This document shows positions 30,568 to 63,915 of a stretch of 64,000 nucleotides of DNA, in pieces. The notes beneath the pieces were generated by a model. It searched no databases and was not told the origin of the DNA. It saw nothing but the letters and a program-made list of their open reading frames with translations. Source of the stretch: Paramacrobiotus metropolitanus (Eukaryota > Tardigrada > Eutardigrada > Parachela > Macrobiotidae); assembly GCF_019649055.1 (NCBI RefSeq), contig NW_026570256.1, positions 186,001-250,000 on the forward strand, written 5' to 3'. Both the position numbers and the translations under genes were made by a program. Positions within the stretch are counted from its first letter, which is position 1. The number at the start of each line of letters is the position of its first letter.

Positions 30568-30913
30568 TGTGAGACGAGGCCTCACTAGCGTTCACGCCCG
30601 TGGCGCTAGGCGCTACGCCTTTGGATTACGTGTCTGTGTTGTGTCTCGCTTCTGATTGGCTTGAGTTGTGTTAGTGGGCGCGGCATAGCACGTGCCGCAC
30701 ACAGTCGAATTGGCTCTACGATTTACGATCGAGCTGCGCCGATCAGTATTGATTTTCTGTTGTCGGAACTTTCAATATTATTAAAAGTTAGCAATTAGCG
30801 GTGCGACGTCTTGTGTTTCCGCATAGCTCGCAATACATATCGCATTGCTCGCTCCATGGGATCTATTCCGTTTAGGTCGCCGTATCTGGATCACAGTTGG
30901 ATCTAGCATTAGA
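30568..30913 (+). repeat. 5' LTR of the giant element
   Basis: 346 bases, starting TGTGAGACGAGGCCTCAC (a small hairpin) and ending GCATTAGA. I count two differences from the 3' LTR (C/A near position 19 and T/C near 290), about 99.4% identity, which suggests a recent insertion. The ends do not follow TG...CA at the 3' side. The LTR itself contains no AAAGGTCA. Confidence 0.9.
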
Positions 30914-30925
30914 TGGTAGCAGAGC
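30914..30925 (+). promoter_or_regulatory. Primer binding site, initiator tRNA-Met
   Basis: TGGTAGCAGAGC starts directly after the LTR. Its first 11 bases are complementary to the 3' end of eukaryotic initiator methionine tRNA (...CTCTGCTA plus CCA). This would prime minus-strand DNA synthesis. Confidence 0.8.
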
Positions 30926-31095
30926 CGACAGCGGTTCTCTGAATTGATCTGATTTGATTTGAAGTGTGTCAGGCAAAGTTGGCCTGTTATTTGTTCACCA
31001 GTAAGGCACAGGTGCGTGGAACAGCAAAGCGCAACACCACAAGCGGTGCAACTCCCAATCGGACGCGGATCTCCAGCTTTGGTTTTCGGTACAGT

Positions 31096-31232
31096 GTCTT
31101 CAGCGAAGACCTGTGCTGTTTCCTCAGCTGAGCAAGAGTTCAAGAGTTCAGTCGTCAGTGTTCCTCGGTGTAGAGTCTTCAGCGAAGACCTACACTGGTG
31201 TCACTGATACTCAGCAAGGCTTCAGCGAAGCC
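31096..31232 (+). promoter_or_regulatory. Cluster of three related stem-loops in the leader
   Basis: GTCTTCAGCGAAGAC occurs at 31096-31110 and 31175-31189, and GGCTTCAGCGAAGCC at 31218-31232. Each has a 6-bp stem with an AGC loop. The first two are extended by an outer helix after a one-base bulge (ACAG/CTGT and GTGTAG/CTACAC). Repeated identical loops in a retroelement leader suggest a packaging or dimerisation signal; this is inference. Confidence 0.6.
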
Positions 31233-31799
31233 TAAGCCGTGGGGCACCAGCGCCGAAGCGTTGAAAGGGGCGCACGGAGAAAGTAGATCAGACTCCACCA
31301 AACTGGTTGTAGAGCACCACTACTGTTGCTACGGCAGTCAGCCGGCACGGTAGCAGACTAAAAGCGTGCGGCACAACCGCTACGGAAAAGCGGCTACGCG
31401 GGAGCGGATAGTGGAGAAGAAATTGGATTATCTGGATCATTTCCCCGCGGAAAGGACGCTCAACAGGTAGGAAACCGTTATTAATTACGGGATTGGCTAG
31501 TTGGTAAAATTCTCAATTCTTATTGGTCGATACTGAGCTGAGCATAGACATAGGCGGGGTTTTTGCACACAGTCACAGTGCGCATGTCTGGCCGTTGACC
31601 GTGACGTCAGGCTGATATAAAATTTAAGTGGATTAACGCTATTGGTCAATTATCTGAGCTGTGATTGGCTGAAATTTGAACTGAATAATTTGAGCTAGCG
31701 GACCAATAGGAACGATGTAAACAACGTAAATGGGGATTTTCCTTTGAACTTGAACTGTAATGGGAAATTTGAATTGAGATGTGAAATTTGAAAAGGAGA

Positions 31800-32293
31800 G
31801 TGACCTTTTGAGTTAAGACAAAGGAAAAGTGACCTTTGATCGAATTGAGCTGGAAAGTGACCTTTGACTTGAAATTGAGCTGGAAAGTGACCTTTAACTC
31901 GAGTTAAGTTGGAAAGTGACCTTTTGAGTTCAAACGAGTGGAAAAGTGACCTTTGACTTCAGAAAGTGACCTTTATCAAAAGTTAGAATTGATCAGTTTG
32001 ACCGTTTTAAGTGACTTTTAAGATCTGAAAGTGACCAACAGTGACCTTTAACAAAGTTGAAATTAAGTTGATTAGTAGTACAGCGATATCAGCAGCTGTA
32101 GAATTTCATTCGTAAACGGGTTCTAAACTGTAAAAACGGTTTCGAAGTTTTGTCTGAAGAGTGACCTTTAGGGCAAAACTCTCGAACTTTTTATCGAAAA
32201 AGTGACCTTGAAACGGAAAGTCGAATTTTTTCAATCGAAAAGTGACCTTTAACACGGACTTAGAAGAAATACGTAGAACGAAAGTGACCTTTA
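31800..32293 (+). repeat. Leader cluster of TGACCTTT octamers
   Basis: Eleven exact TGACCTTT (reverse complement AAAGGTCA) occur in about 490 bases, usually as AAGTGACCTTT at irregular spacings of 15-40 bases, plus near matches at 32008, 32030 and 32203. All have the same orientation. No ORF is present. This is the densest part of the element-wide motif series. Confidence 0.9.
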
Positions 32294-32367
32294 AGACAAT
32301 CGAATAAACCATACAATAACGTGTGTGTGAGAACAATTGGCAGGAGCGTCCAAGTTATCCGATCAAC

Positions 32368-34098
32368 ATGGATAAAGACAAGGAACAACCAACGTCTACC
32401 GGCAGTCAGGGAAGCATAAGCTCCCGAAGTTCACAGCAAGGTGCACCAAATCCGTACAAAAAAGATTTGCACACGTACTCGCGTCCAGTTGAACACGAGC
32501 GGAACACTCGAGCGCCCAAGGCATTCGAGAAGAAGGACTCGCGAGGCTCTGATAGCACCTACCAGAAGGCGCTTGAGGCGGTCGCCAATCAGGAAAGTTC
32601 CAGTGACGACCAGAAACACACTCCCGCGTCTGCGGCGGGAAGCGAACCGATGAACCAGATAAAGGTCACTGGGGAGGAAAAATCCACAGAAAAAAGAGCG
32701 GAAGCAGTGGGAGCATCACAGCTGGATGCTACCATTAGCGGAACGAATGAGCAGGATAAAAATGTGAACCTGGCTCAAGCGGAAGAGAGAAACACAAAGG
32801 TCACCGAAGAGGAACTGGCTGAACTGGGACTGGATGACCTTTCACTGAACGATAAAACCGCAGGCGATGACCTTTGGGCAACTCCAATGGTCTCAGATGA
32901 ATCGAACGAGTCTTACTTCACGGATGATGAAACGACGATGAATATGTCCTTCCAAACCGCGATGAAGGAAGCTGACCGTGCTGAAGGGATAACACCTTTC
33001 AAAGATATACCGGAGCACCTAATTGAACGGACAAGAACAGGAAAGGTCATCAATGTTAGACCGCCATCACCAAACAGTCCCACAACGACTCTGAGGACTC
33101 GTGTGAGAGAGTTGGAAGACGAACTCGAGGCCAAGGAAAATTAAGCAACGAAACGAACAAAAGAAAATCGGGAAAAACTGTCGTCGCTGGAAACCCGAAT
33201 ATACGTATTGGAACAACAACAAGTTGACTTAGAGAGCGCGGCAGATGAATGGAAAATCAAATATGAACGTCAAAGAGAACTCGCGGAAGAATACTTGAAG
33301 ATGGTAGATGACAGAGAAATGGAAGGTCATCTTGCAGTCAGTGACCTTAACGAGAGTATGTCGGAAGAATCAGCGGAAAGGTCACGACACTTAGCCAAAC
33401 TGAAGGACGAATGCGACTCACTGAAACAAAAGGTCACCGAGGCGGAAGCTAAACGAGACGATTATGCGACCAAACTCGCCGAGGCAACCCAGCGACTGTT
33501 GACGAACACTACTGAAGTGTTTAAGCTCAGGAATGACCTCACAGCCACCGAAGGCGCACGGCTGAGCAACGAGATAAAGCGGGTGACGGAGGAGAATAAG
33601 GCGTTGAAAGAAGACATCGAAAAGGTCACCGAAGAAAACACCGAGCTGAAAGGGACCGCCAAGACACTTGCCGAACAAGGCTTGAGGTGGGAGCACGAGG
33701 CACATCTCCTAGACACAAAGGTCACCGCGCTCGAATTGAAAGACAAAGAATGGCAACAAACCGTCCATCAGAAGACACAAGAGATCATCAAACTCAACAC
33801 GGAGTTGATCGATATGATCCAAACGGTAATGACAGGGAAGGATGAGCTCACCCAGACGAAGAATCAGCTGAAGGCAGCAGCTGAAGAATACACGAAATTG
33901 GAAAGAGATGTGACCCAGATGGTGGAACACATTAGAAAGGTAGAGAATGAAAAGGAAAAGGTCATTCAGGAGAGAACTTTCCAACTCCACCAGCACATGC
34001 TGAAGGTCAAGGAGGAGAATCATAATCTGAAAACAGAGAAGGAAGAATTTCAGTTGAAAGTCAGACGCCTCGAAGATGAGAATAAGGCCCTCAAATAA
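32368..34098 (+). CDS. Retrotransposon ORF start: disordered and coiled-coil Gag-like region
   Basis: ATG at 32368 (MDKDKEQ) follows the leader. One reading frame runs to 34098 with a single TAA at 33142 inside it. The first 258 codons are Ser/Glu/Thr-rich and disordered. The part after the stop is an almost continuous heptad coiled coil (about 310 residues, with runs such as EENKALKEDIEKVTEEN). The coiled coil begins before the stop (RVRELEDELEAKEN) and continues after it, so the stop interrupts one protein. The role may be multimerisation of the capsid precursor. At 34096 the frame ends and the next segment is read one base later. Confidence 0.7.
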
Positions 34099-36071
34099 GC
34101 ACAAAGATGAACAGCTCCTGCAATATGGAGTTAGAACGGCAACAGTGGAATCACCCCCGCCCAGTTACAGTAAGGCACAAGAAACGGGCACGGGAAAAAG
34201 CTTTCACTTTGAAATGCCACCACGAACTGGTACCGGCAGAGGAAGTGTCAAAAATGAAAAAAATGGCGAAAAGGTCAAAGATGACAAAGAGCCACCATCA
34301 GGAGGCTATCCGCATACGAGTCACAGCGATCCCTCCCAATTTCCCCCGCATATTGAAACGTACGTGTACATCGACGAAGGGCTCAGAGACAGACCATCTA
34401 GTCGGCAAGAACGCCCACGGAAGTCTCGTTATGCAAAGCCGAAGCGGAATCAAAGTGACGATGAAAGTGGCGAAGAGGAAGATGACCAGAAAGCGCAATC
34501 GGGATTTGCATTAGCAAAGGCGCTCAACTCCATGGCTCGGAAAACGCCACTGGTGACCTTTGATGGCAGTCGTGACACTGTGAATGGTTGGACAAGACTG
34601 GTGAAAGATACGCAGAGAACTTACCAGCTCACCGACGATCAAATCATGATCGAGATAGCCAGCGCGGTGAAAGGCCCTGCTAAAACCTGGTTTGAAAGTG
34701 AAAAAGATATTGCATCAGAAGACGGAATCGAATATTCGGTAACAGAATGGTTGGATAAACTTAAAGACGAGTATGGTGACCGAGATGAAGCTTCAAGTCC
34801 TAGGCTTACGCGAGGCCTACGCAAGGAAATTCGAACTTGGAAAGAAATCGCTTGACCAGTACTATCAAGCGATGATGCGATTCAAAGCTAAGAGGATCAT
34901 TACGGAAAAACAAGCAGTGGGCTTCTTGATCGAAGGATGTAGAGTAGACAATGAACTCTACAAGGCATTGCCTACACAGAAGTGTAGAACGCCAACCCAT
35001 GTAAAGGATTTCTTCAGACACTGGGCAACGGGAGAAGAAAAGTATAAGGCGCCAAAAGGTCAACGTAATCAAGAATACGCGACCATCCGCCAAGGCCAAG
35101 TTGAAAATGTACCGCAACAAAGGATGGCAGCTGCACCAGTCCAACAGCCGGTGGAATACCGGAGGGAGGCTCCAGTGCAAGAGGTCACCAAAGAAGTGAC
35201 CTTTATCGACAGCCAGACGGGACAGCCACTTACGTATGCAATGGTAGCTGCGATACAGGCGGCGGCTCAAGTGAGACCGGCACCTCAGAATGTGGCTCCA
35301 CCGGCACCACAGAATTTGGCCCCTATGAATGTAGGGTTACCACAACAAGGAGTGGGCAACGGAAATTTCGGTGGAAACGGCTATGGAAATGGAAATTGGA
35401 ATGGAGGTCAAGGAAACTTCCAGAATCAAGGTCAAGGTCAAGGCAACTTTCAGCCAAACAGAGGAAACCAGAATAACTTCCAGCAGAATCAGGGGTCACG
35501 AACGGAATTCAAGTTTCAAATGATTGATGGATGGGTTGCAAATGGCGTACAGATGTGCCAATACTGTATGTACGGTAACCACCAGACGCAGGGATGCAAG
35601 TTCGCGAACACGCCGCCGGATCAGAACCCGAACTTGTTCGCCTTCAGAGAGTGGCAACGGCTGCGCAATTCGGGCGGCTGGCGACAAGCTGTGGCAAATG
35701 GATATGACCTGATCGCTCAATGGTATCAGGCGAAAGCGAACTTTCAGCAAGGAAACGGTAGTTACGGAAACGGAAATGGCGGCCAAGGCGGTGGCAATCG
35801 TGGCGGCTACCGCGGCGGCTTCAGAGGAAGGAACAGAGGCTTCGGTCGTGGAAACTACGGTGGCGGCAACCGAGGCGGTGGCAATGGAGGTGGCCAAGGA
35901 AACTACCAACAGTGTGGTGGCCAATACAATAATGGCGGTGGCGGACAGAATCCTAACCCGGCAAATGATATCGGACAACAACAAGGAAATGTACAAGGAA
36001 ATGTACAAGGAAATGTGCAAGGCGCGCAACAAGGTGGAGCGCCGGTTCAGGGAAACGGGCAAGATCAGTAG
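34076..36071 (+). CDS. Gag capsid and nucleocapsid region (frameshifted)
   Basis: Two overlapping frames (34076-34855 and 34773-36071) together resemble a Ty3-type capsid domain: LVTFDGSRDTVNGWTRLVKD and VKGPAKTWFESE in the first, then LGKKSLDQYYQAMMRFKAK in the second. The change of frame falls near 34790 inside the domain. Downstream are a Gln/Asn/Gly-rich segment, one CCHC zinc knuckle (35556-35597) and an RGG-rich tail (GGYRGGFRGRNRGFGRG) suited to RNA binding. It ends in TAG at 36069. The region packages genomic RNA. Confidence 0.7.
35556..35597 (+). other. CCHC zinc knuckle
   Basis: CQYCMYGNHQTQGC fits C-x2-C-x4-H-x4-C exactly. This is the nucleocapsid signature of retroelements. It sits between a Gln/Asn-rich linker and the RGG-rich tail. 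Confidence 0.85.
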
Positions 36072-38292
36072 GCGCCGGTGAGCCTACTGATCGACCCGAC
36101 CCTAAACCGCCGGATAAAAAGGGAACAGAAAGGTCATCACTGCAGAATGGTACTGCAGTGAACGTGACCACTGCGGCGGCTATATGGATGCCGTCAGCGC
36201 AAAAAGAAAAGGGAGCGGCTGTATGGATGCCGTCAGCGCAAAAGACAAGGGAAGCGGCTATATGGATGCCGTCACAGCAGCAAAACGAACTGGTTACCGG
36301 GAAACTAGTGCAAGTAGACAAAAGGTAACCGCAGAATGGTACTGCGAGTGGAAACGCGCAGCGGGACCAAAGGTCACCGCAGAATGGTACTGCGAGTGGA
36401 AATCGTCATGACGGTAGCGCGACACTGCAAAAAGTGCAGCCAAGTGAAAGGTCACCGTATTGCAGCGAGGAAGTGTTAGCGCAACGACGCGCACAACGAA
36501 ACGCGAAGATTCAACAGGCGCTGTTGAACCAGAAGAAGCTGCAGATTGATACTGCACAAGACGAAAATGAGCAACATGCGAAATTCCGAAAATACTTGGC
36601 AGAAAACGACAAAGTGAATGAGTCACGTTGCGACTGTTACGAAGGGATAAAGTCAAAGTTCTGGAATTGTTCAGAGGACGAAGATGAGAAGTTGATAAGG
36701 CAAAAATGGATGGAGCAGAATATCACTGCTAATAGTAAAGATGAAAGGTCACCTTCCGTAGGAAAAGTTCAAGTGAAAGGTCGAGGAGCAAGTGCGAACG
36801 CTAAAGGTTACGGCGAAAGCGCCGTGTTAAAAGTTCAAGGAACAGACTTGACACTGCGAACAGCGCAGCAGAAGAATAGCGAACCGGCACAGCAGAATTT
36901 CAATGACTCACTTGTGGATGCAGTAACGCAGCAACGGAAGGAAATATGGCAAAAAGTAGCCTACAGACCGAACGGGAATCACAGAATGTGGATACCCGTA
37001 ACGCCAAAAGCGAAACAGAAAACGGGAATGTCACAAGAGGATTACTGGGACATGCAAGTTTTGCGAACACAACATGAGAGGAAAAGGCTAAAAGAGCTGG
37101 TTACCGGGAAACCAGCGCAAGGGTCACCGAACCCAGTCCCAGTATTCAACGCAGAGGAATATACGAAGACATTCGCCGACGCGAATTACTCGCGGAACGC
37201 ACCACCGAAAGATAAACCGTTAAATTATGGAGAAAAAGTTCCCATACAAAAGTTGGCTGACGGCGGATTTGTCATGAAGCGCAACGAAAGGTCACAGGAC
37301 TTAGCGCAAAATGAACAGAAAGGAGGGTCAAATGAGATGGCGCAAATGCAACAGAGTAGTGCAGTTGAAAGGTCACGGGACTTATCACAAGCACTGCGGC
37401 AGGATACCAATGACAAGTCTCCGGCCCGGACAGACGGGATGTCTTCGTAAATCGACCCAACGAAAACGAACAATGAAGTATCTGCAAAAGCGATTGAATG
37501 GATGACCGAAAAGGGATACGATATGGTTACGTACAAAAGGTCACCAAATGAGGTGAGGGATAGCGAAGAAGACGAATTGAAGCAAGCTGACCAAATAACA
37601 AGTGAAGTCATTGAGAAGCTGCGAGATAAACGAAATGAAAACCGCAAGGAGGAACTGATCCACGAGACGATAAATGAAGTGACTAAAGGTCACGTGGACA
37701 GCACAAAAGCAAATCCGCACGTGCAGAATAATGAAAAGGTCACCAGCGGTAAAATGGCTGCAGAAAAGCAAACAAATATGAAAAAGCCGCGTAAATTTTA
37801 CGATGTCCGAACTGACTTGCCACACAGGATTGATAAGTTGAGTGAGATACTGAAAGGTCATAGCACTCCTGCGAAAGGGTAAGTGCTCCCCGATATGGAT
37901 CCGGGACCAGTATCGCTGATTCCTGTGAAATGTAAGATTCATACACTGAAGATTCAAAATGGAAAATTACCTACGAGAATCGAAGCGTATACACATGAAG
38001 TGAAAGTGGGAGACATAAAGGTCAACGCAATGCTTGACACTGGCGCAGAGACGTCGCTGATCAGTAAACCTTGTTGCGAGAAGAATGGACTTCATATGCT
38101 TCCATTGCCACCTGACAGATTGGTGAAAATAAACGGAATCAGTGGAACGTCAGGATTCCTGGTGACGCATTATTGTGTAGCACCAGTGACTTTAAGGAAG
38201 AAGACTAGCGAGCATTCATTCTACGTCCGACCGAAGTGTGACGACGTACAGGTGCTACTGGGATTCGACTTCTTAAAAGGAAATTTGTACTG
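36072..38292 (+). CDS. Linker region and retropepsin-like protease
   Basis: Read in one frame with TAA codons at 36326, 37448 and 37880. The linker begins with three copies of an AAxWMPSAQK-like peptide (36175-36270), followed by charged low-complexity sequence. The protease domain occupies about 37883-38292 and carries the active-site sequence MLDTGAETSLIS (Asp codon at 38036), with VLLGFDFLKG as the second conserved element. One active-site Asp per chain implies a dimer. The stop TGA at 38290 overlaps the next ATG (TGATG), so re-initiation is possible. The stop at 36326 turns a motif-encoded TCA into TAA. Confidence 0.72.
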
Positions 38293-39224
38293 ATGGATAA
38301 CGAGGGTGAAGAAGAAAAAAAAGATGACCCGAAACCAGTTGCCAAAGTACAAGTCGGAAAGGTCACCGAACTTGAAAAACAGACGGGAAATGCTCAAACG
38401 GCTAATAAAACGCTAATCCCAGTACCAGAGGCACCGGGAAAGGAAAAGAAAAAGATGGTGCAAAAGGAATTGTCAACATTTGAGCAGTTGAAAATGATTC
38501 AGCAGGAGATTGAGAACACATTAAATCGGACACTGCTGACACAAAAGGGAAGAGAAAAGGTCATCCCAGTACCAGAGGCACCGAGAGTGACAAAAGCGCA
38601 GCAGGAAGAAATTATCCAGCACCAGAGGCACTGGAAACGAAAAGCGAAAACGGAAATGTCGAAAAAGTTATCTCAGTACCAGAGGTACTGGGAACGAAAG
38701 ATGAAAGGTCACCAGCTGAGAACTTGGCGCCAGAGCCGGATCCGAAAAACGTCAGCAAGACCTTTTTCGAACCACGATCTGCTACCAAAAATGACGAAAG
38801 GTCACCAATGTTCGAAGAGATAGCTGCCACACAGAAAGAAGCGACAGCTGTAACGAAACAATCGCTCATGCCTGGCATGGAGTGGGCAAAGCCTATCCCA
38901 GTACCAGAGGCACTGGGAATAAAGACGGCCAAAGTAGGGAAAGATAAAAAGAGTGAAAGATTACGGATATTGAAACGAATAGCTGAAGAAGAGCAGATGT
39001 TCGCGAGCGAAATCCGCAACAAAGCGATTGAACAATTGAAAGGTCACCAACTAAACAAAGAAACAGAGATTCTTGAAATATCCCCCGACGAAGCGAGCGT
39101 AACCCAAATCGAATGTGAGCAAAAAGCCACAACACAGGAGGATGAGGTTGCCAACCCGCACACGAGTCGAAGGATATTAACTCCAGAAGAACGAATTGGG
39201 AGCTGCGGACACGGTTACTACTAG
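38293..39224 (+). CDS. Repeat-rich region between protease and RT
   Basis: Starts at the overlapping ATG 38293. It carries at least five copies of a 24-27 base unit reading IPVPEAPG, AlaPro or SerVal variants included, at about 38418, 38568, 38617, 38677 and 38898. From about 38612 the repeats are in a different frame, explained by one missing C in the CCC of the repeat unit. Near 38763 the peptide TFFEPRSAT occurs; related FFEPR peptides return behind the integrase. It ends in TAG at 39222, but the same frame continues beyond. Function unknown. Confidence 0.5.
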
Positions 39225-42200: not shown

Positions 42201-42777
42201 GAAGTTTTATCCGGCAAAGCCGACTGTCATTGAATGTAACGCGAGTAAAGAAGGAATCGGAGCTGTCCTATCACAAGAAGGTCACCCGATCGCATACGCC
42301 AGCCGCGTCTTACACGGAGCAGAAAGAAATTACGGTGTAACGGAATGGGAATGTCTGGCGGTGGTCTTTGCCGTCAGAAAATTCAAGCCATTTATCGACT
42401 ATGCGGAATTCACCGTAAGAACGGATCATCAGGCGCTGACCAACTTACTAAGGTCAGAGACGAATAAAGTGGTAATGAACCCGCGTCTGACAAGATGGGC
42501 GATGGCACTGCAGGGTCACCAGTTTAAAATTGAATATAAACCAGGAAAGTACTGTGACAATGCGGACGCGTTATCAAGAGCGCCGATCGAAGGGCCAACG
42601 TGTCACGAAGAAGAATTTGATGAAATTTCAAACTTCGAGGATTACAAGAAGGAATTTGACACAAAAGAACCAGCAATTGAAATTGGCCAGTTGTTCTTAC
42701 AGATGGTGGAACAACGAGAGAAACGATTAAAGGTCACTTCAGCTACGGCGAATGAGTCGGCTGAAACAGAAGCCTAA
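39225..42777 (+). CDS. Spacer, reverse transcriptase and RNase H
   Basis: A long acidic spacer (39225 to about 41100) precedes the polymerase. RT runs from about 41280 to 41990: HVIDTGDAKPVKCNP, then after a frame change near 41425 (a CCC reduced to CC) VKKNGDG, GKMDLQSGFWQI, MPFGVCNGPATFQ and the catalytic FGYIDDVIF (YIDD, Asp codons near 41789). Another frame change near 41967 (GG reduced to G within AAAGGTCA) leads to LGLANYY, the thumb and RNase H (about 42220-42590). The first RNase H catalytic Asp is Asn (IECNAS, codon 42238); the Glu (WECLAVV) and the Asp of RTDHQAL are kept. The segment ends in TAA at 42775. The host element needs this enzyme to copy RNA into DNA. Confidence 0.88.
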
Positions 42778-45051: not shown

Positions 45052-45177
45052 CCCGTATAAATACGAATCAGGGGTTTACTTCACTAAAAATAGGAGTTGG
45101 GAAGGTGTAAAAAAGGTCATCACTGTTGTAAAAGCTAATCAACATCGTTTCATTGTTACAGAAGGTAAGCACAGTTA

Positions 45178-48100: not shown

Positions 48101-50079
48101 GGGAGACATCTCGCGAATCAGAAGCATCGGAAGTGAGCCTACCAAGTACTTCGACGGTTAGCACAAGGTCACACACGGACCCGAAAACGACTAGAGCAAG
48201 AACCACCGAGCCAAGAAGCCTTGCGGAAGCTTTGGAAAAAGGGAAAAAAGCAAAGTGCGAACCTGTTAAGACTAAAGGAAAGGGCAAGGCAATTATGAAA
48301 ATCGATGCATTGGCGATGGCTAATTACATCGAACCGGATGGAGAGAGTGAACTTGATTACTCAGGAGATGAAGCAGAATTCGTAGATCCAGACAGCGATA
48401 ATATGACTACGATTGATGAAATCATCGATGCGTTTGACGGAGCGGAGAAGAATTTTACACGGATACGCACGACATCAGTAACATCGAAATTCAGAACGGG
48501 CTTAAAGAAATATTTGAGAAAAGAAATGCACCGTAGCTTCACCAAGCAGAAGTTCGATGTGGTATTAGAATACGCTCGGAACGCGGGAAAACTTCTCCAG
48601 AAACATCCGAATTTCGCGTATAAGGCTAAATTATTTAGACCGTCAAGTTCGGATAAGGCGCTAACGACTCCAAACGAAGATACCTCAATGCGAGTAGAAA
48701 GGGCAATCGCGGGAATGACAAGCCCGTTGGGGTCAACGAGTCACCGGATCAGCCAATACATCAATGCTGTTTGGAATGATGGGAAAGGAATGATAAAGGA
48801 AATCGATACAGCCACCGAACGCGTGTTGCCGAGGATGATAAAACAGAACATCCTTGCTACAACAAACGCACATAAAGGATATCCGATCCGATACACGAGA
48901 GTAGGCCTGATACCGCCGGAAAAACAAGTCCATTGTAACATGTCCGACAGTCAGGAGATGGAAAAGGTGCCATCGAGCGGAGACCCGACAACTCCCATAT
49001 TGAATCGGATCGCGCAGCTAACAGCTGAAGAAGAAGCCACTCGGGCTACAGCACAAGCACCGAAAGCGACGAAAAAGAAAGGGCCGATGGACGTGGAATC
49101 GGAAGAGAGCGACGATGACACCTCTGTCCCAACGCCTTTGGAACCGGCGACAGAAAAGTCTAAAGGTCAAGAGACATCCGGAACTGCGACGGAAGAAAGT
49201 CAACCGAAAGGTCATGGGACTTTAGAAAAACGGGAGAAAGAAAAGGTCATGCTCTTAATGGACAAGGCAGCGGCAGAAGCGGCCTCTGCGCGACAGGTGT
49301 ACCAGAAATCTTTGTTCGCACCATTGAAGGAGGTTTTTGAGAAAGAGCGATCGAAGTCGGCAGGTGAAGCGGGAGGTCACGAGACTTTGCCACAGAAAGA
49401 GAAAACCGACGTACCGAAATCTGCTCAGTCATCATCTGGCTCGTTGGCAAAACTGAGGATTGATGAAACGGAGACAACTGACCCAACGCACTCGGCATTA
49501 TCCCCCCAGAAAACGGAATCTAGCGGTACGAAGACAAAGGAGGCGACGGACTATACGCTAGGAGCACCGTTGGATGTGACCAACCGGACATGGAGCGAAG
49601 TCCAAGCGGCACTTCAGAGCACTAGCAAGGGTGAAATGCTGGGCCCAGACCTGAAAAGACAAGTCGCCGAAAATTCAAACGGAAGATCGTCACTTAGCAT
49701 GACCGAGCGAGTCTTAAAAAGGGCATATAAGGAAGGAAGACTGGGATGTAAATATGACAAAGACAACAAGATTATTTATTACCTTCCGAAACAGGACCAG
49801 GACCGCACGCCCAGACTGAAAATGGAATTGGAGGCCTGGAAAATAGCCATTACAGATGTGGCTTTAGACGCCATTGGCGGTACCAATGGAGCGTCATGGG
49901 GCGACCTTTCGAACTTCATGGCTGTCCATTACGAACTGGGAGAATTGAATATCGAGAAAGACAAAGAATGGATCAAGAATGCCGTCGAAGCCTTGATTGC
50001 AGACGAAACGCTTCATATTAACAAAGATAGCCGAGTTGATTTTAAGCCGCTACGTCCGCCGGCGAAGGAGTCTGAGTGA
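45178..50079 (+). CDS. Accessory ORF region A, function unknown, winged-helix-like end
   Basis: Open segments 45178-45801, 45659-47887 and 47905-50079 overlap or adjoin in different frames and look like one ancestral ORF of about 1,600 codons with one-base frame changes near 45650 and 47850. The N-terminus is Gly/Tyr/Pro-rich. The middle (about 46650-47450) holds two related blocks of about 140 residues (QFVPPEERHNPRV compared with DLIPESERQDPVV). The C-terminal 75 residues (from 49846) resemble the linker-histone H15 winged helix: ASWGDLSNFMAVHYELGE, IKNAVEALIADETL. Similar but weaker patterns lie near 48690-48900 and 49580-49790. It is not envelope-like. A DNA- or chromatin-binding role is only an inference. 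Confidence 0.6.
49846..50058 (+). other. Linker-histone (H15)-like winged helix
   Basis: The segment follows the H15 order: a helix (AITDVALDAI), Gly/Ser turn, a second helix ending HYELG where histone H1 has HYKVG, a spacer, then a third helix IKNAVEALIADETL that aligns with the H1 IKRLVxxGxL region, and a final basic strand. It is recognised by eye only. Confidence 0.45.
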
Positions 50080-50436
50080 ACATGACAGATGTAATATGCA
50101 GCGAGTAATGAACCCTGCATATTACAGAATAGCATAAAATAGTTCAAAATGAAAGAGAAAAGTGTTACAGAAACGAGAGAGCGAAAAGGTCAACCTGAAT
50201 TAGACTAATAGAAAAGGTCACAGTAGTCAGAAAACGCTAATAACGTGAGAAAGGTCACCACGTTACAGTGATAGAAAGGCAGCAGGAGCTAGGAAAGTCT
50301 CAGCTCAGTAACGGAATAGCCTAAAATAGGCGTAAAATGATAGAAAAGTCGCGTTAATGGATAAGAAAGGAAAAGATTATTGTGGAGAAATAACTATGAT
50401 GGAATTGTTTTTATATTACAGAATTAACACGGAAAG
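50080..50436 (+). other. Spacer between accessory regions
   Basis: An 11-bp stem GTAATATGCAG/CTGCATATTAC (50091-50101 and 50115-50125, 13-base loop) lies 12 bases after the stop of region A. The rest contains three AAAGGTCA octamers and short ATAAAATAG-like repeats, with no coding sequence. Confidence 0.55.
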
Positions 50437-53178
50437 ATGGCACAGAAAGGTCAAGCCACTCAACGAAGTCAGGGAACACTTCCAATGGACGTCGATCAGT
50501 CTACGGGCTATAATCCAAGGTGTCCGGACTGCTTACGCAACAACAGAAAAGTCAATAAGAAGTTCCCGTGCTACACATGCGTTCATAAGTTGGGGGACCC
50601 ACACATTGTTTCACTCGTGGGAATCATGGAAGCTAAACGGGGGAATATGGATGTTTTTCGGAACCTCATTAGCGCGAGGAATTATGGCAGCATCCCGGTA
50701 GAAGAGCGAATGCTACTCGAGGATCGTTATCGGGAAGCGATCCAGAATAACGAGAGTGGCTGGGATGATACTCTAGAACCATTGAAATGTTCACAAACGG
50801 ACGCATACCGTAAGAAGTTCGAGGAGGAACAGGAGCGGATGCAGCGCCAGAAGTTGGAGGATGAACTCCGTGCGAAGATTAACGCGCAAAATCAAAGGGC
50901 AAGCGAACAGGCCGCCAGGGAGCCACTGCCCAGCACGTCGAGCTCAGCTGTACCTACAGCCAGCCTCAACGAAGATGAAGCGCAGCTTACACGACAGTCT
51001 CTCAATCTGCAGATCGATACGCTGACGAGTGACCCGGCTGCCATGCAGCAGGATTTATTTGACGCGCTGTTACGAGAGAAAATGAGATTACAAAAAGGTT
51101 TTGCTCCAGCGCCGTACATAAAGAAGGAAATTGAAAAACGTATGGAGGATCTGCGTAAATCCCGTCAAAATGAAAGTAATGTTCTGCAGGCGCTCAGAGG
51201 ATTTAAACGGGACGAAGGTTTCATACGCCCTCGATCGCCTCCGCATAGAGAAAGGTCACGCGGACATTTACGGGAACATGAACGAACCTCTGAAAGACGA
51301 AGCGAAAGGTCACGTGAATACTCTCGTGAAAGGACACGGGATTACCGCAGTGAAAAGTCACGCGAACGTTCTCACGACCGAGATTACCGTGGCGGAAGAG
51401 GATGGGTGCGCCATGGCAATGAGATAACGGAAACGACCATTCAACGGAAAATCGATACGGCAAAGATTTTGGCAGCGACGAGAGGACGTGAAGAACAACG
51501 GCGTGCGGAGACTTACCGTACAGAGCCTGAAAAGAAAGGTCATCAGGTGCCGTTGGGAGTTGGATTCTGTAATCGCAATGTCAGAATGTCAACACCCGAA
51601 AGGTCATGGGACAAAAGGCGCGAGCAGACGCGAAATCGAACACCGGACCCAAATGATAAGAGATGGCAAGAGAGAGCTGCATATTATGCGGGCTTTGAAT
51701 CCGGTGCAAGCAAAAGGTCATCGAGTGCGGAACGGGAAGATTCACCCCCAAAGTATCAAAGGATGGAATCAACAGTCCACGTGGTGAACCCAATCGTTAG
51801 TGCCGTTCAAGAAGATGACCCGATGGAAGGGGCCAGCTCAGTTGTGGATTTGACGTCCCAGGACAATGTGACCCACCGACGGAACGTAATTTTGGACAAT
51901 GACCTTCAACCGGCTATATCGGCGAGTAACGAACCGTCGCAGCCCGAGTCAGAAGGACGGCGTGAACAAGAAGGTCAACGTGAACCGGATGATCGTCGTG
52001 AAGCTGACCGACGAACGACTTCCAGATTTAACAACCGACACCCCGACATAATCGACATGGAATGTGATATGTCAGACACCGACGAACAAATGGCGGGAAT
52101 TTGTCGATACATAGGGATTGAAGGTGATTCAGCGGAAGCGAATAAGATTCACACAATTCTGAATCAGCTGCGCCAATTTTTATTCGATTCGGGCTATGCA
52201 AAAGAGATTAAGAAGGGAGTGGAAGAAGGAAATTTCCATCGATTATACATTCCCCGCGATTCAGTAAGAGATTGTTATCTCCCTATTCGACGGAACGGGT
52301 TACATAGCCTACTGGATTTGAGTTTACTGGATGTACCACTGGATACGACTGACCCAGTCGGGATGACACAATTTTATTATAGGGACTATCCCTAACGACA
52401 AGAATATGTGGCTCAGTTCGTTTTACGTCATGTGAATCCAGCCTTCAAGTTGCTTGCAGCAAGGGCATCGATAGGACTACAAGTGGATCCTAAAGACTAT
52501 GCCGCAAGAAGGATGGGGCAGAAGGTCTTCGCTGCGAGACTGGCACACTATAAAACACAGGTTTAGCTGGTGTCTAATACTATGAAGGACGATATCCCAC
52601 TACTCTTCCGACCTCATGTGGCGAAATTGGAAGAACCCATGGAACATGTCGGAATAGCCCACACGGCTCGCAAGGCGTTGAAAAAGTGCAAGATACGAAT
52701 GGAAAAGGGCAACCTTACACAGCGCCATGCCTCCCAGGTGGAAGAGAGGATCAATCGAATCAAAGACACCACGAGAAGCGACTACGTCGAACCAATGGAC
52801 GGAGTTGAAACGTATATTGATGAATTCCTAGTGAAGAAAAGTGACCGGCGCCCAGAACGCGCTCCTAACCAGATAGGACGACGTGGCTTACGAAACCAGC
52901 AGCTTCGAGACAATCTCGCCGATGTACAACGTCGATTGGCAGATGACCCTGATAACCGAAGACTGCGGTTAGAAGAAAATGACGCACGCCATCGAGTTGA
53001 GGCGGTTAAGCGAAGTCGCCAAGGGAAAGGTCGCGGTCAGCGAGAGGTTGATTCGGAAAAGGTCATGGGAGTTGATTCAACGGAACCAGTTGACCGAACG
53101 TCAGACCAAAATCAACCGAAAAGCGCTAAAAAACGTCCGCCGAGAGACGGCGAGGACGATTCAAATGAGATGGAATAG
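50437..53178 (+). CDS. Accessory ORF region B with CxxC pair and RS/RE-rich domain
   Basis: One frame from ATG 50437 to TAG 53176, with TAA at 52393 and TAG at 52564 inside it (913 codons). The N-terminus has a zinc-ribbon-like CPDC...CYTC pair (residues about 29-47) and QKGQ, then a Gln/Glu/Arg helical segment. An Arg/Ser/Glu-rich tract follows (about 51235-51400; SRGHLREHERTSERRSERSR), like SR splicing factors. It ends in a compact acidic segment and, beyond the stops, a Lys/Arg-rich tail. Much of the ERSR pattern comes from the AAAGGTCAC motif in this frame. No homologue is recognised; RNA binding or splicing control of the element is a guess. Confidence 0.55.
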
Positions 53179-53851
53179 TGTTGACCGTTAGGATCACACT
53201 ATTAGAATGGCGTCTACGGCATCTGTCGGTACGTCACAGAAATGAAAAAAGGTGTTGTATAAGGGCGACGTGACATGTTAACACTAACTGTATTCGTGTA
53301 TTTGTTGTTTGCAGCGTTTATAGCACAGAATCACAAAGGATAAAGAAATCATGTGGAGCATCTATTGGGGTTGAAATTGATTCGGTCTCTAAAGCCGGCC
53401 CCAAGGGAGTGGCTACGGCAGTTAGCCGGCCCTCCTCTTAAGCGATTCAGTGTTATAAATTCACAAGAAAAACTACGGTAATCAAGCCGGATCTCTTGAA
53501 TACGAAAGTGGGCCACAAGCGGCGAAAAAGAGAAAGACAACAGGTGGAATGTTAATGGGGTAAACATAATGCGGCAGTCAGCCGGCCTCATTAGAGTTGC
53601 TAAGGTAAATTATGCCGGCCATCTCTCTAACCGATTCAGTGTCAGAACTTAACGAGAGAAACTACGGAAATTAAGCCGGATCTCTCGAGACGAAGACGGG
53701 CCACAAGCGGCGAACAAGAGTAAAAGATTGAATGTGGAAGCGTCATGGGGTAAATTCAATGCGGTAATTAGCCGGCCCCATCAGAGATGTTACGGTAAAC
53801 TTTGCCGGCACTCTGGCCGCTCGAGGCATATTAAAGTTGGATGTGCGACGG

Positions 53852-55274
53852 TATCAGGGCGGGCTTATGATTCAGCCCTTCTCTCATTGGTTGGTTTTGG
53901 GTTTTTTCCTGTCTGGGCATTTGCATGCGCTTTGATGGCTCTATAAGGCAGCTGCGCTGCCTACAGAGACCAGTTGGTTTTTGGCTTGCGCGCAAGCGCG
54001 GTGTGTGTTCAGATTTCGGCATTAAAGCCTACATCCGGGTTCGTTTTGCTCCTCCGTCGATGGACGATGCGCGCTTAACCAGCGCCATCTGATATGGTAG
54101 CAGATCGTGGTTCCGATCGTGTGCTACACAGCGGGCTTGCCCCGCTCACGGGCCACCTCTGAGTTGTGGACCAGATCGCGTGATCGCGTCCTGTGCCACC
54201 CCCGGGTACGGAGCTCATCCCGCTCCCCCGGATTCCCCGTCAGTCGCCGGAGCTGTGCCGTCACTCCCGCAGAACGCGGAGGAAACTGCCTCTCCCAGAA
54301 GGGGATGGAGATATCGCCAAGCCAGAAGTGCAGCGATGGACGGACAAACCCACAGCCACACCGTACCGATGACGGATGCCGACGGTGGACGCAACCCGGA
54401 CCAGCAGGAAACCTGCGGACCCTTCACCACCACCAACAGCCACGCCAACCCCGATCCCCACGGCCGGATCGACCACCATTACCACGCCGAGAAATTCACC
54501 CCACCAAAACCCTGCCCGCCTTACCTGGGACAGCGACCTTTCCCCGGCGGAGCAGTGGAATTGCCCCACCGGAGCAGCGTAATTTTGTGTTTGCAGGGTC
54601 ATGGCCGTACCTGTGCCCCAAACCCTGCGCGATTTTCCCCAGACGGTGACCTTTCTCCAGACGGATAAAATGCGGAATCTACCGATTTCCGCATCCGACC
54701 CTGAATTCTGTCGCGACAGTGCGTTGACCTAGGCACTGGACCGCGTGAAGCCGAACCAGACCGACCGAACGAGCCAAACCGACCGAGAACCACTCCTAAA
54801 CCGAACCTGATCCGAGCCGACCAAACCTGGACCGAGCCGGACCAAACCTGACTGAACCAGATCCCATACCGGACCACGTGAGCCGACCGAACTGGAACCG
54901 AGCCACCCGGTAGTACAGTCTATTAGACATAGTACAGGGACCGTACCGGTCCCTGTATCCACTGTTCTTTTACGGCGCATCACGCCATTTACCTGCACTT
55001 CGCAGGAGCTCAGTGTTAGACCGTACAGGGATATCAGGGCGGGCTTATGATTCAGCCCTTCTCTCATTGGTTGGTTTTGGGTTTTTTCCTGTCTGGGCAT
55101 TTGCATGCGCTTTGATGGCTCTATAAGGCAGCTGCGCTGCCTACAGAGACCAGTTGGTTTTTGGCTTGCGCGCAAGCGCGGTGTGTGTTCAGATTTCGGC
55201 ATTAAAGCCTACATCCGGGTTCGTTTTGCTCCTCCGTCGATGGACGATGCGCGCTTAACCAGCGCCATCTGATA
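53852..55274 (+). mobile_element. TRIM-like non-autonomous LTR element, 1.42 kb
   Basis: Two apparently identical 243-bp LTRs (53852-54094 and 55032-55274) start TATCAG and end CTGATA. The 4-bp target duplication is ACGG (53848-53851 and 55275-55278), confirmed by the empty site in copy B. A primer site TGGTAGCAGA follows the left LTR directly. The 937-bp interior has overlapping open frames (for example 54180-54668) without Gag, RT or integrase motifs, and a CCGAACC/GACCGA-rich section near 54740-54860. It needs enzymes in trans. Confidence 0.88.
54095..54118 (+). promoter_or_regulatory. Primer binding site of the TRIM-like element
   Basis: TGGTAGCAGA matches the 3' end of initiator tRNA-Met, as in the giant element. 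The following bases (GTGGTTCCGATC) also resemble the complement of the T-arm (ATGGTTTCGATC), so an extended or tRNA-derived match is possible. Confidence 0.7.
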
Positions 55275-56295
55275 ACGGAAAGGTCAAAATTGGAAGGAGG
55301 CAAGCAACGAAATGCTTGACGGCCGCAGAAAAAAGGCTAAGTTCCTCCATGACCTTTGATGGAAGTTTGAAGAGAAGTCGAATGACCTTTGGGATCATTA
55401 TCGCCCAAGAGAGTCACCGTATTAGAATTCAAGTCGCATGACCTTTTGGGACCATTAACCCATATGAGTCGCACATCTCAACGGATCATCTGAACAAAGG
55501 ATGACCTTTACTAGGGAGGAAGCGAACTATGCTTGTCTACATGACGTCCCTCCATGACCTTTATTGGATCTCATTTTAAGTCGTACAATTGATACGCACC
55601 ATATCCCAAAGATTGAAGCAGTATTACCTAAGTCGTACTTGATACGCACCCGATTCTCAAGCGGATTGTGATGAAAGTCGCACTATGGATGCGCAGAATT
55701 GCTCAAGCGAGCGGAATGGGCCAAGGTGTGGAAAACGGTGGACAGGACCTGTGACCTTTACGAGTCAGAAATGGAGGATCCTAGTCTACATTGATTAATT
55801 GCTTCTGTTGATCTGTTTAACTGTTGATCTGTTTTTGTATTAGAATTGATATGGAATAGTATTTTGATACAGATCTCTTTATTTCACATTGTGCATTTGG
55901 AATTGATGTGATAAAATGGAATAAGAGAATTTGATGTTTTTGAGCACGCACAGACACCGGCGACCGCCGGCGACAACAATAAAAATTCGTGGGGGCGGCC
56001 ATAACTGATGCGGCCATGGATATTATCGTCGGAACAAACGCAGTGACGTTGAATGACCTTTTGAACTGCATGGCTGTCTGACTTTGAAATGTTCAAACTG
56101 AATATCGGAAAGGATGGGAAGTAAATCAGAAACTCTGTTGAATGTTTGATTAACGACGGAGCACTTGAACTGGCGTAAACGACAAAACGTGAAAGGTCAC
56201 CGCGTTAGAATGAAGCAATTGACCTTAATGATTTAACGAAAAAGGTCACGAAAGGTCATCAGAAGCGAATATCATGGTTAAGTGTAAAGGTCACG

Positions 56296-57570
56296 TAACA
56301 TGTTAACTTAAACTGCATTCGTGTAATTGTTGTTTTCAGCGTTTATAGCACAGAATCGCAAAGGATAAAGAAATCATGTGGAGCAGCGATTGGGGTTGAA
56401 ATCAATTCGGTCTATTATGCCGGCCCCAAAGGAGTTGCTACGGCAGTCAGCCGGCTCTCCTCCTTAAGCGACTCAGTGTTACAAATTGGCAGGAGAAACT
56501 ACGGTAATCAAGCCGGATCTCTTGAACACGAAAGGGGGCCACAAGCGGCGAAAAAGAGAAAGACAACAGGTGGAAATATTAATGGGGTTGAATTTGATTC
56601 GGTCCATTAGCCGGCCCCATCAGAGACGCTACGGTGTACTATGCCGGCCACTCTCTCCAAGCGATTCAGTGTCAAAACTTAACGAGAGAAATAACAGTAA
56701 TCAAGCCGGATCTCTCGTACCGAAGATGGGCCACAAGCGGCGAACAAGAGTAAAAGATTTAATGTGGAAGCGTCATGGGGTAAATTTAATGCGGTAGTTA
56801 GCCGGCCCCATCAGAGATGCTACGGTAAACTCTGCCGGCACTCTGGCCGCTCGAGGCATGTTGAAGTTGGATGTGCGACGGAAAGGTCAAATCGAAATCT
56901 TTATCAGGAGGCAAGCAAAGAAGTGCTTGAAGGCCGCAGAAAATTGGCTAAGTTCCTCCATGACCTTTAATCGAAGTTTGAAGCGAAGTTGGATGACCTT
57001 TGGGATCATTACCGCCCAAGAGAGTCACCGTATTGGAATTTAAGTCGCATGACCTTTTGGGACCATTAACCCAAAACGAGTCGCACATCTCAACGGATCA
57101 TCCCAACAAAGGATAACCTTTACCAGGGAGGAAGCGAACTACGCTTGTCTATATGACGTCCCTCCATGACCTTTATGGATCTCATTTTAAGTCGTACAAT
57201 TGATACGCACTAATTCCAAAGATTGAAGCAGTATTCCTAAGTCGTACTTGATACGCACCTGATTCTCAAGCGGATTGTGATGAAAAGTCGCGATAAGGAT
57301 GCGCGAAGTTGCTCAACAGAGCGGAATAGGGAAAAGTGCGGAAAACGGTGGACAGGACCTGTGACCTTTATGAGTCAGAAATGGAGGATCCTAGTCTACA
57401 TTTGATTAAAAACTTCTGTTGATCTGTTTAATTGTTGATCTGTTTTTGTATTAGAATTTATATGGAATAGTATTTTGATACAGATCTCTTTATTTCACAT
57501 TGTGCATTTGGAATTGATGTGATAAAATGGAATAAGAGAATTTGATGTTTTGAGCACGCACAGACACTGG
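56296..57570 (+). repeat. Tail duplication copy B
   Basis: Direct repeat of copy A at roughly 90% by eye. It includes the AAAGGTCA/TGACCTTT sites, which are mostly conserved; one site is altered (GATAACCTTT near 57113). Confidence 0.85.
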
Positions 57571-57640
57571 CGACCGTCGTCTTTTCGTGGATTTGGGAGT
57601 GTGTCCAGCCTCAACGGAGCTCGGCATCCCCCCAGAGGCA

Positions 57641-57986
57641 TGTGAGACGAGGCCTCAATAGCGTTCACGCCCGTGGCGCTAGGCGCTACGCCTTTGGATT
57701 ACGTGTCTGTGTTGTGTCTCGCTTCTGATTGGCTTGAGTTGTGTTAGTGGGCGCGGCATAGCACGTGCCGCACACAGTCGAATTGGCTCTACGATTTACG
57801 ATCGAGCTGCGCCGATCAGTATTGATTTTCTGTTGTCGGAACTTTCAATATTATTAAAAGTTAGCAATTAGCGGTGCGACGTCTTGTGTTTCCGCATAGC
57901 TCGCAATACATATCGCATTGCTCGCTCCACGGGATCTATTCCGTTTAGGTCGCCGTATCTGGATCACAGTTGGATCTAGCATTAGA
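57641..57986 (+). repeat. 3' LTR of the giant element
   Basis: 346 bases matching 30568-30913 with two substitutions. It is preceded by CCCCCCAGAGGCA, a poor polypurine tract, and followed by the target duplication ACAG. Confidence 0.9.
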
Positions 57987-58304
57987 ACAGTATGTCGCAA
58001 TACTGCATGCAGACCGGCCGGCATAATTATTATAAACACGGCAAACCACGCCTCTATCTGCGCAGTGCGCATTCATCGAATGGCATTCCGTACATTTTAT
58101 TAGACCGGCCGTTTTAAATCACAGCGCTATTGCAGCCACCCAGGCCGGCGTTTGCACAGTTTATTTTTTGTGTTTAAATTAGAAGTTGCTACCGCTCTTG
58201 CCGTGATTGATCGCCAAATGGCCCAAATCACTGAAATCAGCAGTTTAACGAGTGTTTGAACAGTTAACGAATGCTGAATATATATTGCCAGAGCACCCAC
58301 AACG

Positions 58305-63599: not shown

Positions 63600-63915
63600 G
63601 TGACCTTTCTGGTTCGCCGCGTGAGGAACTCACGTCTTTGAGGGTGTCAAGAACCTTGAAGGTCACTAAAGGTCACCATTGTGACCTTTTGGGTTCGCCG
63701 CGTAAGGAACTCACGTCTTTGGGGGTGTCAAGAACCCAAAAGGTCACTAAAGGTCAACACTGTGACCTTTTGGGTTCGCCGCGTGAGGAACTCACGTCTT
63801 TGGGGGTGTCAAGAACCCAAAAGGTCACTAAAGGTCACCACTGTGACCTTTTAGGTTCGCCGCGTGAGGAACTCACGTCTTTTGAGGTGTCGAGTACCAT
63901 AAAGGTCACATTAAC
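63600..63915. repeat. 81-bp tandem array rich in AAAGGTCA
   Basis: Units start at 63600, 63681, 63762 and 63843 (GTGACCTTT), an exact 81-base period. Each unit contains GTGACCTTTTGGGTTC and its reverse complement GAACCCAAAAGGTCAC as an outer stem, with CGTGAGGAACTCACG as an inner hairpin, and a third octamer in the spacer (CTAAAGGTCAC). About ten exact octamers lie in 320 bases. The array may continue an element that extends past the window. Confidence 0.9.

What the first reader, a model, noticed from the sequence alone, without database searches (positions are those of the whole stretch)
30568..57986. Retrotransposon saturated with the NR4A/DHR38 site AAAGGTCA
By eye I count about 100 exact AAAGGTCA or TGACCTTT octamers within 27.4 kb; random sequence would give about one. 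They run through leader, Gag, Pol, accessory ORFs and tail, with a gap only in the LTRs. AAAGGTCA is the published NBRE (monomer site of NGFI-B/NR4A and DHR38) and contains the AGGTCA half-site of many nuclear receptors. An element that distributes a host receptor site along its whole length could use it for transcription, for chromatin or nuclear positioning, or for packaging via a dedicated binding protein. I know of no described retroelement of this design.
Basis: partly seen in the sequence, partly recalled or inferred. Interest (0 to 1): 0.92.

Follow-up and report, generated by a model that had tools for sequence, protein, structure and literature searches.

The report
Giant tardigrade retrotransposon studded with AAAGGTCA
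A very large jumping element in the genome of a tardigrade carries about a hundred copies of one eight-letter DNA word, kept by selection even inside its protein-coding parts, which suggests that it depends on a host DNA-binding protein recognising that word along its length.

Summary
The window lies in Paramacrobiotus metropolitanus (Tardigrada). The element is a young 27.4-kb Ty3-type LTR retrotransposon (LTRs differ at 2 of 346 bases, 4-bp target duplication) with 103 exact AAAGGTCA/TGACCTTT; an order-2 background gives 2, and codon-preserving shuffles of 12 ORF pieces give 4.7 against 59 seen. In 13 other copies third codon positions inside the word are 96% identical, against 69% for the same codons outside; in five copies at 77-82% identity 42 of 48 words are intact, where 13-21% is expected. 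A collinear sister element (10 kb, long open frames) has none. Both orientations are enriched, as for a double-stranded DNA site. In 180 kb of unselected DNA from one contig AAAGGTCA is the most over-represented 8-mer that is not a simple repeat (40 against 7). Clusters also lie in introns of a kinase and a cyclase gene, in DNA-polymerase-B elements and before a secreted-protein-like gene. Best reading: an exact NBRE-type site for a host factor, accumulated along the gene body to keep the element open or expressed. The factor and its effect are untested.

The parts
30568..30913 (+). 5' LTR, 346 bp, no AAAGGTCA
   Evidence: differs from the 3' LTR at 2 of 346 positions
57641..57986 (+). 3' LTR, 346 bp, no AAAGGTCA
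30564..30567 (.). target-site duplication ACAG (5' side)
57987..57990 (.). target-site duplication ACAG (3' side)
30914..30926 (+). candidate tRNA primer binding site starting TGG directly after the 5' LTR
   Evidence: tRNA not identified, inferred
31801..32292 (-). leader cluster: 11 TGACCTTT (word on the minus strand), partly in degenerate ~30-bp tandem units; GT and AG dinucleotides flank it, so it may be an intron
   Evidence: intron status by eye only
32320..36071 (+). 5' ORFs including a coiled-coil-like ORF and a Gag-like ORF with a C-x2-C-x4-H-x4-C knuckle
   Evidence: knuckle and coiled coil by eye, no Pfam hit over a cut-off
36329..41507 (+). ORFs of unknown function up to the RT, dense in AAAGGTCA
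41408..42022 (+). reverse transcriptase (PF00078)
   Evidence: E 3.2e-25
41971..42777 (+). RNase H (PF17917/PF17919); other frame than the RT ORF in this copy
42778..45051 (+). integrase (PF17921, PF00665); separated from the RNase H ORF by an in-frame stop in this copy
45169..53178 (+). accessory ORFs, no Pfam hit over a cut-off, charged and low-complexity by eye; the 11 relatives found for the 47785-50079 ORF are all from P. metropolitanus (capped candidate list)
53257..57551 (+). tail of duplicated blocks; 13 of its 19 words are TGACCTTT
31801..57369 (.). 103 AAAGGTCA/TGACCTTT sites (67 +, 36 -); base 9 is C 54, T 33, A 15, G 1

Best explanation
AAAGGTCA is a functional, orientation-independent double-stranded DNA site of the host, in sequence an exact monomeric nuclear-receptor (NBRE) site. 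One group of giant Ty3 elements carries about one site per 270 bp along its transcribed body, gained by point substitutions inside coding sequence and by short tandem repeats in leader and tail, and selection keeps the sites. SHOWN: the array, its conservation at synonymous positions, its absence from a collinear sister element, and the same word as the top non-simple 8-mer of sampled host DNA, with examples in host introns. INFERRED: a host DNA-binding protein (NR4A-like or another receptor of that specificity) occupies the sites. INFERRED, weaker: dense occupancy over the gene body keeps the element transcribed or shielded from silencing in the germ line, as intronic PATC DNA does in C. elegans; having mostly exons, the element places the sites there.
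For: Count and controls. Across 9 pol copies, words fully conserved in 82% on average against 35% for phase-matched 8-mers, 0 of 20,000 draws as high. Third codon positions in words against outside: 252/264 vs 7615/10453 (9 pol copies), 51/51 vs 1131/1540 (3 copies of the 5' part), 6/6 vs 314/546 (L051), 8/9 vs 196/376 (L045); codon-matched over 13 copies 309/321 (96.3%) vs 68.9% expected. Shared words at 77-82% identity 42 of 48; at 86-89% identity 78 of 93. All three reading phases are used, so it is not a protein motif. Both orientations are enriched, 11-fold and 32-fold over codon shuffles. Sister L019: 0 words in 10 kb although pol (60% aa) and accessory ORFs (32-45% aa) are collinear with long open frames. 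A more distant family (L037, 31-46% aa in the 5' ORFs) has 16 words in 3 kb and the same layout. Host side: 42,562 words genome-wide vs 15,522 for the reversed word; 40 vs 7.3 expected in 180 kb; words between two Pkinase exons in L041 and beside a Guanylate_cyc exon in L050; 5 of 5 words shared by paralogous loci L003/L004 at 84% identity.
Against: No binding, expression or chromatin data. No host NR4A gene was identified. The host-gene examples come from places where two words lie close together, so they show that it happens, not how often. In the DNA-polymerase-B elements the words are no better kept than chance at 90% identity (4 of 7, 3 of 7). In unselected DNA base 9 is not biased (A9 C13 G8 T10), unlike in the element (G 1 of 103), so host and element sites may not be read identically. 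Other Ty3-like loci in the sample (L019, L025, L027) have no words. L045, a relative at 72.5% identity, keeps 1 of 3 words, and the window's word at 44928 is shared by 1 of 8 copies. L019 third positions at word sites are unconstrained (3/6 vs 302/561), as expected of a word-free line but a small count.
Confidence: 0.48

Rival explanations
1. Plain enhancer array: a host nuclear receptor (NR4A, ERR or relative) activates transcription of the element through many sites in a tissue where the receptor is active; gene-body position is incidental and there is no anti-silencing role.
For: Exact NBRE octamer; the host has 63 zf-C4 exon hits, among those read FTZ-F1 (L052) and ERR (L054); words upstream of and inside a secreted-protein-like gene in L003/L004.
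Against: An enhancer needs few sites near the promoter, yet 69 sites lie about 2-22 kb downstream of the 5' LTR, most of them in ORFs and at strongly constrained synonymous positions where copies could be compared; the LTRs have none.
Confidence: 0.22
2. The element or its relatives encode their own protein that binds the sites on DNA or cDNA for nuclear positioning, integration or partitioning; or the very many sites act as a sponge that titrates a host repressor.
For: Several accessory ORFs with no known domain; 271 first-look candidates for the integrase segment, 40 scored and matched at 87-100% identity.
Against: The same exact word is in host introns, DNA-polymerase-B elements and a satellite, which points to a host factor; the sister L019 keeps the accessory ORFs but has no words.
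Confidence: 0.15
3. RNA-level signal: AAAGGUCA or UGACCUUU in the transcript binds a protein for export, packaging or splicing.
For: Words lie in introns of host genes; leader words are all one orientation (11 of 11) and body words mostly the other (61 of 73).
Against: Both orientations are enriched in coding sequence, and the forward bias there is smaller than codon constraint alone predicts (48:11 seen, 4.35:0.34 in shuffles); in the three host introns looked at both orientations occur (L041 and L047 against L050); the leader array is partly tandem, so its uniform orientation is not 11 independent events.
Confidence: 0.1
4. Neutral: the words come from a mutational or tandem-duplication process, or the copies are simply too young to have lost them.
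For: Leader and tail words partly lie in repeats; the LTRs are nearly identical; in the DNA-polymerase-B elements words are not kept above chance.
Against: Synonymous positions in words are conserved far above the same codons outside in the same copies; at several matching sites the sister has near-words such as AAAGGTCG and AAAAGTCA, so substitution, not insertion, separates them; 1-mismatch relics are rare.
Confidence: 0.04

Closest known systems
Burro giant Ty3/gypsy elements of planarians (PMC6431247, passages seen)
   Same: LTR element of the Ty3 kind with an internal region above 20 kb, extra coding sequence of unknown role, tandem repeats; here the internal region is 26.7 kb with 346-bp LTRs
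   Different: Burro is described there with a giant polyprotein carrying MATH, BIR, ankyrin and env-like parts; no such Pfam hit in the 17 ORFs scanned here; the term 'binding site' does not occur in that paper's main text
NBRE, the site of NGFI-B/NR4A receptors (PMC6912296, passages seen)
   Same: identical octamer AAAGGTCA, strict at all eight positions
   Different: known as one to a few sites in promoters, not about 100 along coding sequence (recalled); here base 9 avoids G
PATCs, periodic An/Tn clusters of C. elegans (PMC7725773, start of abstract, passages)
   Same: short sequence feature distributed in introns along genes that counters germline silencing; a mechanistic analogue
   Different: an A/T periodicity, not a protein-site octamer; no anti-silencing effect has been tested here
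Drosophila gypsy with its Su(Hw) insulator array, and ONSEN with heat-shock-factor sites (both recalled, no call)
   Same: LTR elements that carry repeated sites for a host DNA-binding protein
   Different: about a dozen sites or fewer in the leader or LTR, not spread over coding regions (recalled)

Membership tests
Ty3/gypsy LTR retrotransposon | paired LTRs with short target-site duplication | tested here: met
   346-bp LTRs, 2 differences, ACAG on both sides
Ty3/gypsy LTR retrotransposon | pol order RT, RNase H, integrase | tested here: met
   PF00078, PF17917/PF17919, PF17921+PF00665 in that order
Ty3/gypsy LTR retrotransposon | Gag with zinc knuckle | tested here: inconclusive
   C-x2-C-x4-H-x4-C seen by eye in 34743-36071; no Pfam Gag or knuckle hit
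Ty3/gypsy LTR retrotransposon | aspartic protease | tested here: inconclusive
   no Pfam protease hit in the 17 ORFs scanned
Ty3/gypsy LTR retrotransposon | tRNA primer binding site after the 5' LTR | tested here: inconclusive
   starts TGG directly after the LTR; no tRNA matched to it
Burro | internal region above 20 kb | tested here: met
   26,727 bases between the LTRs (coordinates)
Burro | MATH, BIR, ankyrin accessory domains | tested here: not met
   no such Pfam hit in 17 ORFs scanned
NR4A (NBRE) target array | exact AAAGGTCA with strict A at the first position | tested here: met
   103 against 5 each for C, G, T in first position
NR4A (NBRE) target array | host encodes an NR4A receptor | tested here: inconclusive
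   63 zf-C4 exon hits; of 10 read, none is NR4A by eye; FTZ-F1 and ERR supported by PDB matches; 53 not read
NR4A (NBRE) target array | receptor binds the sites in the cell | not testable with these tools
   needs EMSA or CUT&RUN
PATC-like anti-silencing DNA | distributed along gene bodies and introns | tested here: met
   element body; intron of a kinase and of a cyclase gene, exons by Pfam, borders by eye
PATC-like anti-silencing DNA | about 10-bp A/T periodicity | not tested
   the signal here is an octamer; no periodicity test was run
PATC-like anti-silencing DNA | protects against germline silencing | not testable with these tools
   needs transgene or chromatin data

The most novel reading that the evidence does not exclude
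P. metropolitanus uses AAAGGTCA as a genome-wide, orientation-independent gene-body code, written in introns and near starts of its own genes and read by a nuclear-receptor-like protein that marks DNA as licensed for expression; giant retrotransposons have copied the code, at synonymous positions, into some 20 kb of exons and so pass as host genes.
Probability: 0.22. Interest if true: 0.95.

Novelty: new variant of a known kind. Interest (0 to 1): 0.8.

Why it matters
Mobile elements are known to carry a few host regulatory sites in LTRs or leaders (recalled). Here selection holds about 100 copies of one exact octamer across coding sequence, with a word-free sister element in the same genome as a natural control. 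That makes testable how a transposon can escape silencing or recruit a host factor through its gene body, and it points to an undescribed DNA signal in a tardigrade genome. In the held library no paper has the octamer with 'tardigrade' or TGACCTTT with 'transposable elements' and 'nuclear receptor'; the two papers with AAAGGTCA and 'retrotransposon' are, by their listing, about flipons and zinc fingers and about rice mapping.

Tried and rejected
Protein motif (K-G-H/Q, K-R-S, K-V): rejected, all three phases are used and synonymous positions are constrained. RNA-strand signal: disfavoured. A feature of this one copy: rejected. All Ty3 elements share it: rejected (L019, L025, L027 without words). 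Another word playing the role in L019, L025 or L027: among the 8 loci scanned no non-simple 8-mer reaches the z of 34-42 that the word has in two stretches of the element; the best are 10-14. Preferred spacing: in the body (33.0-53.2 kb) no gap under 28 bp in 68 where about 4.5 are expected, weak and not pursued. DNA-binding domain in accessory ORFs: no Pfam hit at E up to 5 for P0092, one worthless hit for its C-terminal piece; a winged-helix look is by eye only. Sorting single host words into promoter, intron or exon: given up, no gene models. Genome-wide test of intron preference by splice-donor patterns: not completed. Paper search on coding-sequence motif arrays: 0 papers. One search was badly put (22,714 papers, the 10 listed do not mention the species). 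One search listed two papers naming Paramacrobiotus with genome assembly and transposable element; neither was read.
Full report
What it is. The window is G000:C36:186001-250000 of a 169.8-Mb assembly in 533 contigs. The integrase ORF matches a Paramacrobiotus metropolitanus protein best (87% over 100%), and contig lengths given for P. metropolitanus proteins (1,249,434; 974,462; 666,635) equal C36, C55 and C79, so the host is this tardigrade (taxonomy). The finding's coordinates are exactly an LTR retrotransposon: two 346-bp LTRs differing at 2 positions, ACAG on both sides, RT, RNase H and integrase in Ty3 order. The internal region is 26.7 kb. Pol of this copy looks broken (RT and RNase H in different frames, a stop before integrase), while some siblings have longer open runs there. 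The integrase segment has 271 first-look candidates in the genome, of which 40 were scored and matched at 87-100%.

The count. 103 exact words, 67 on + and 36 on -: leader 0 and 11, body 61 and 12, tail 6 and 13. Each of the 24 one-mismatch words occurs 0 to 6 times. Order-2 Markov simulations give 2.05, max 8; an order-4 model gives 40.8, max 57, because it has the word's 5-mers built in. Codon-preserving shuffles of 12 ORF pieces (17.3 kb) give 4.35 forward and 0.34 reverse against 48 and 11. Words occur in all three phases. Base 9 is almost never G (1 of 103); other flanking bases carry at most 0.13 bits. The longest word-free stretch is over RT and RNase H (41078-42729), as expected if protein constraint limits where words can go.

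Conservation. In 9 copies of 41280-45110, the ten words of the reference are intact in 82% on average; phase-matched 8-mers in 35%; none of 20,000 draws reached it. Against: the word at 44928 is shared by 1 of 8 copies. Pairwise pieces: five copies at 77-82% identity share 3/3, 10/11, 15/18, 10/11 and 4/5 (42 of 48; 13-21% expected); nine copies at 86-89% share 78 of 93 (30-39% expected); L045 at 72.5% shares 1 of 3; L019 shares 0 of 3; L025 had none to compare; L037 gave no piece over the threshold. Copies also have words the window lacks: 25 over 13 copies, 19 of them one mismatch away. Third codon positions are the cleanest test: inside words 252/264 (9 pol copies), 51/51 (L006-L008), 6/6 (L051), 8/9 (L045); outside 7615/10453, 1131/1540, 314/546, 196/376; in the sister L019 3/6 against 302/561. 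Matched by codon over 13 copies, 309/321 (96.3%) against 68.9%; 20 of 25 word sites have no third-position change in any copy. These cells are not independent, since copies share history. The ORFs themselves are under protein constraint (first and second positions more conserved than third, also in the 5' and accessory parts).

Natural controls. L019, met in an unselected 10-kb sample, is a collinear sister: pol 60% and accessory ORFs 32-45% identical in protein, open frames up to 666 aa, 0 words in 10 kb. At some matching sites it has near-words such as AAAGGTCG and AAAAGTCA, at others nothing alike or a gap. L037 is a more distant family (31-46% in the 5' ORFs) with 16 words in 3 kb and the same plan: a leader cluster of TGACCTTT, then AAAGGTCA in the ORF. 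Between L037 and L002, at 83% identity, 6 words are shared of 7 in L002 and of 9 in L037. Whether the array was gained twice or lost in the L019 line cannot be told, since the sampled parts of L019 and L037 do not correspond.

The host side. Genome-wide there are 42,562 words against 15,522 for the reversed word, a rough control. In 20 unselected 10-kb stretches, all from contig C1, the word occurs 56 times against 8.4 expected; without L019 and L037 it is 40 against 7.3, the most enriched 8-mer after TA and TATC-type simple repeats. Thirteen places with two close words, chosen from the list, were read. Between two exons of a protein kinase (Pfam positions 72-154 and 156-263) lie two words in L041; four words precede a guanylate cyclase exon in L050; words precede an SH3 exon in L047 (below the curated cut-off) (intron borders by eye). 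L039, L040 and L043 are copies of a DNA-polymerase-B element whose intron-like insert is built of TGACCTTT units; there the words are not kept above chance (4 of 7 and 3 of 7 shared at 90% identity). L044, L046 and L049 are a short repeat family; L045 and L051 resemble the element; L042 and L048 hold degenerate arrays. The paralogous loci L003/L004, which read like a secreted-protein gene, share 5 of 5 words, in L003 three before and two after the likely start codon, at 84% identity outside them.

Mechanism. Exactness, use of both orientations and independence from reading phase point to a double-stranded DNA site. The octamer is the NBRE. Receptors FTZ-F1 (L052) and ERR (L054) are present, but their recalled preference is CAAGGTCA, which is rare here (5); NR4A was not seen among the 10 of 63 receptor exon hits that could be read. 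That the same word is enriched in host DNA argues for a host factor. That it is kept over the body, in exons, argues against a simple promoter enhancer and for something acting along the gene, for which C. [quoted passage not shown] passages). This last step is inference.

Novelty. Giant Ty3 elements are known (Burro; PMC6431247, passages). An LTR element with about 100 copies of one host-type site, conserved at synonymous positions, through leader, ORFs and tail was not found in the held library by the searches, seen as listings only; the library lacks most subscription papers. I file it as a new variant of a known kind, with a possibly new kind of genome signal behind it.

Noticed in passing
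63585-63909: Satellite of four 81-bp units holding 10 words, including inverted pairs (AAAGGTCAC-CACT-GTGACCTTT), outside the element.
   Followed up: partly
L039, L040, L043: DNA-polymerase-B (PF03175) elements with an intron-like insert made almost only of degenerate TGACCTTT units.
   Followed up: partly
L003 and L004: Paralogous secreted-protein-like genes; in L003 three words lie just before the likely start codon and two after it, all five shared with L004.
   Followed up: partly
L044, L046, L049: Short repeat family with two words 21 bp apart in each of the three copies seen.
   Followed up: no
L042 and L048: Degenerate minisatellite-like arrays mixing the word with ACCTTT units.
   Followed up: no
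53257-57551: Tail of the element contains blocks duplicated at about 1.2, 1.6 and 3.0 kb spacing.
   Followed up: no
5943-6654: Degenerate array of a 9-base TAGGTTTCT-type unit between two 16-base arrays that look like reverse complements of each other.
   Followed up: no
47785-50079: C-terminal end of this accessory ORF looks like a winged-helix (linker-histone-like) fold by eye; no useful Pfam hit, structure job not accepted.
   Followed up: partly
L025, L027: Loci with Ty3-like protein matches and long open frames, without any word.
   Followed up: no
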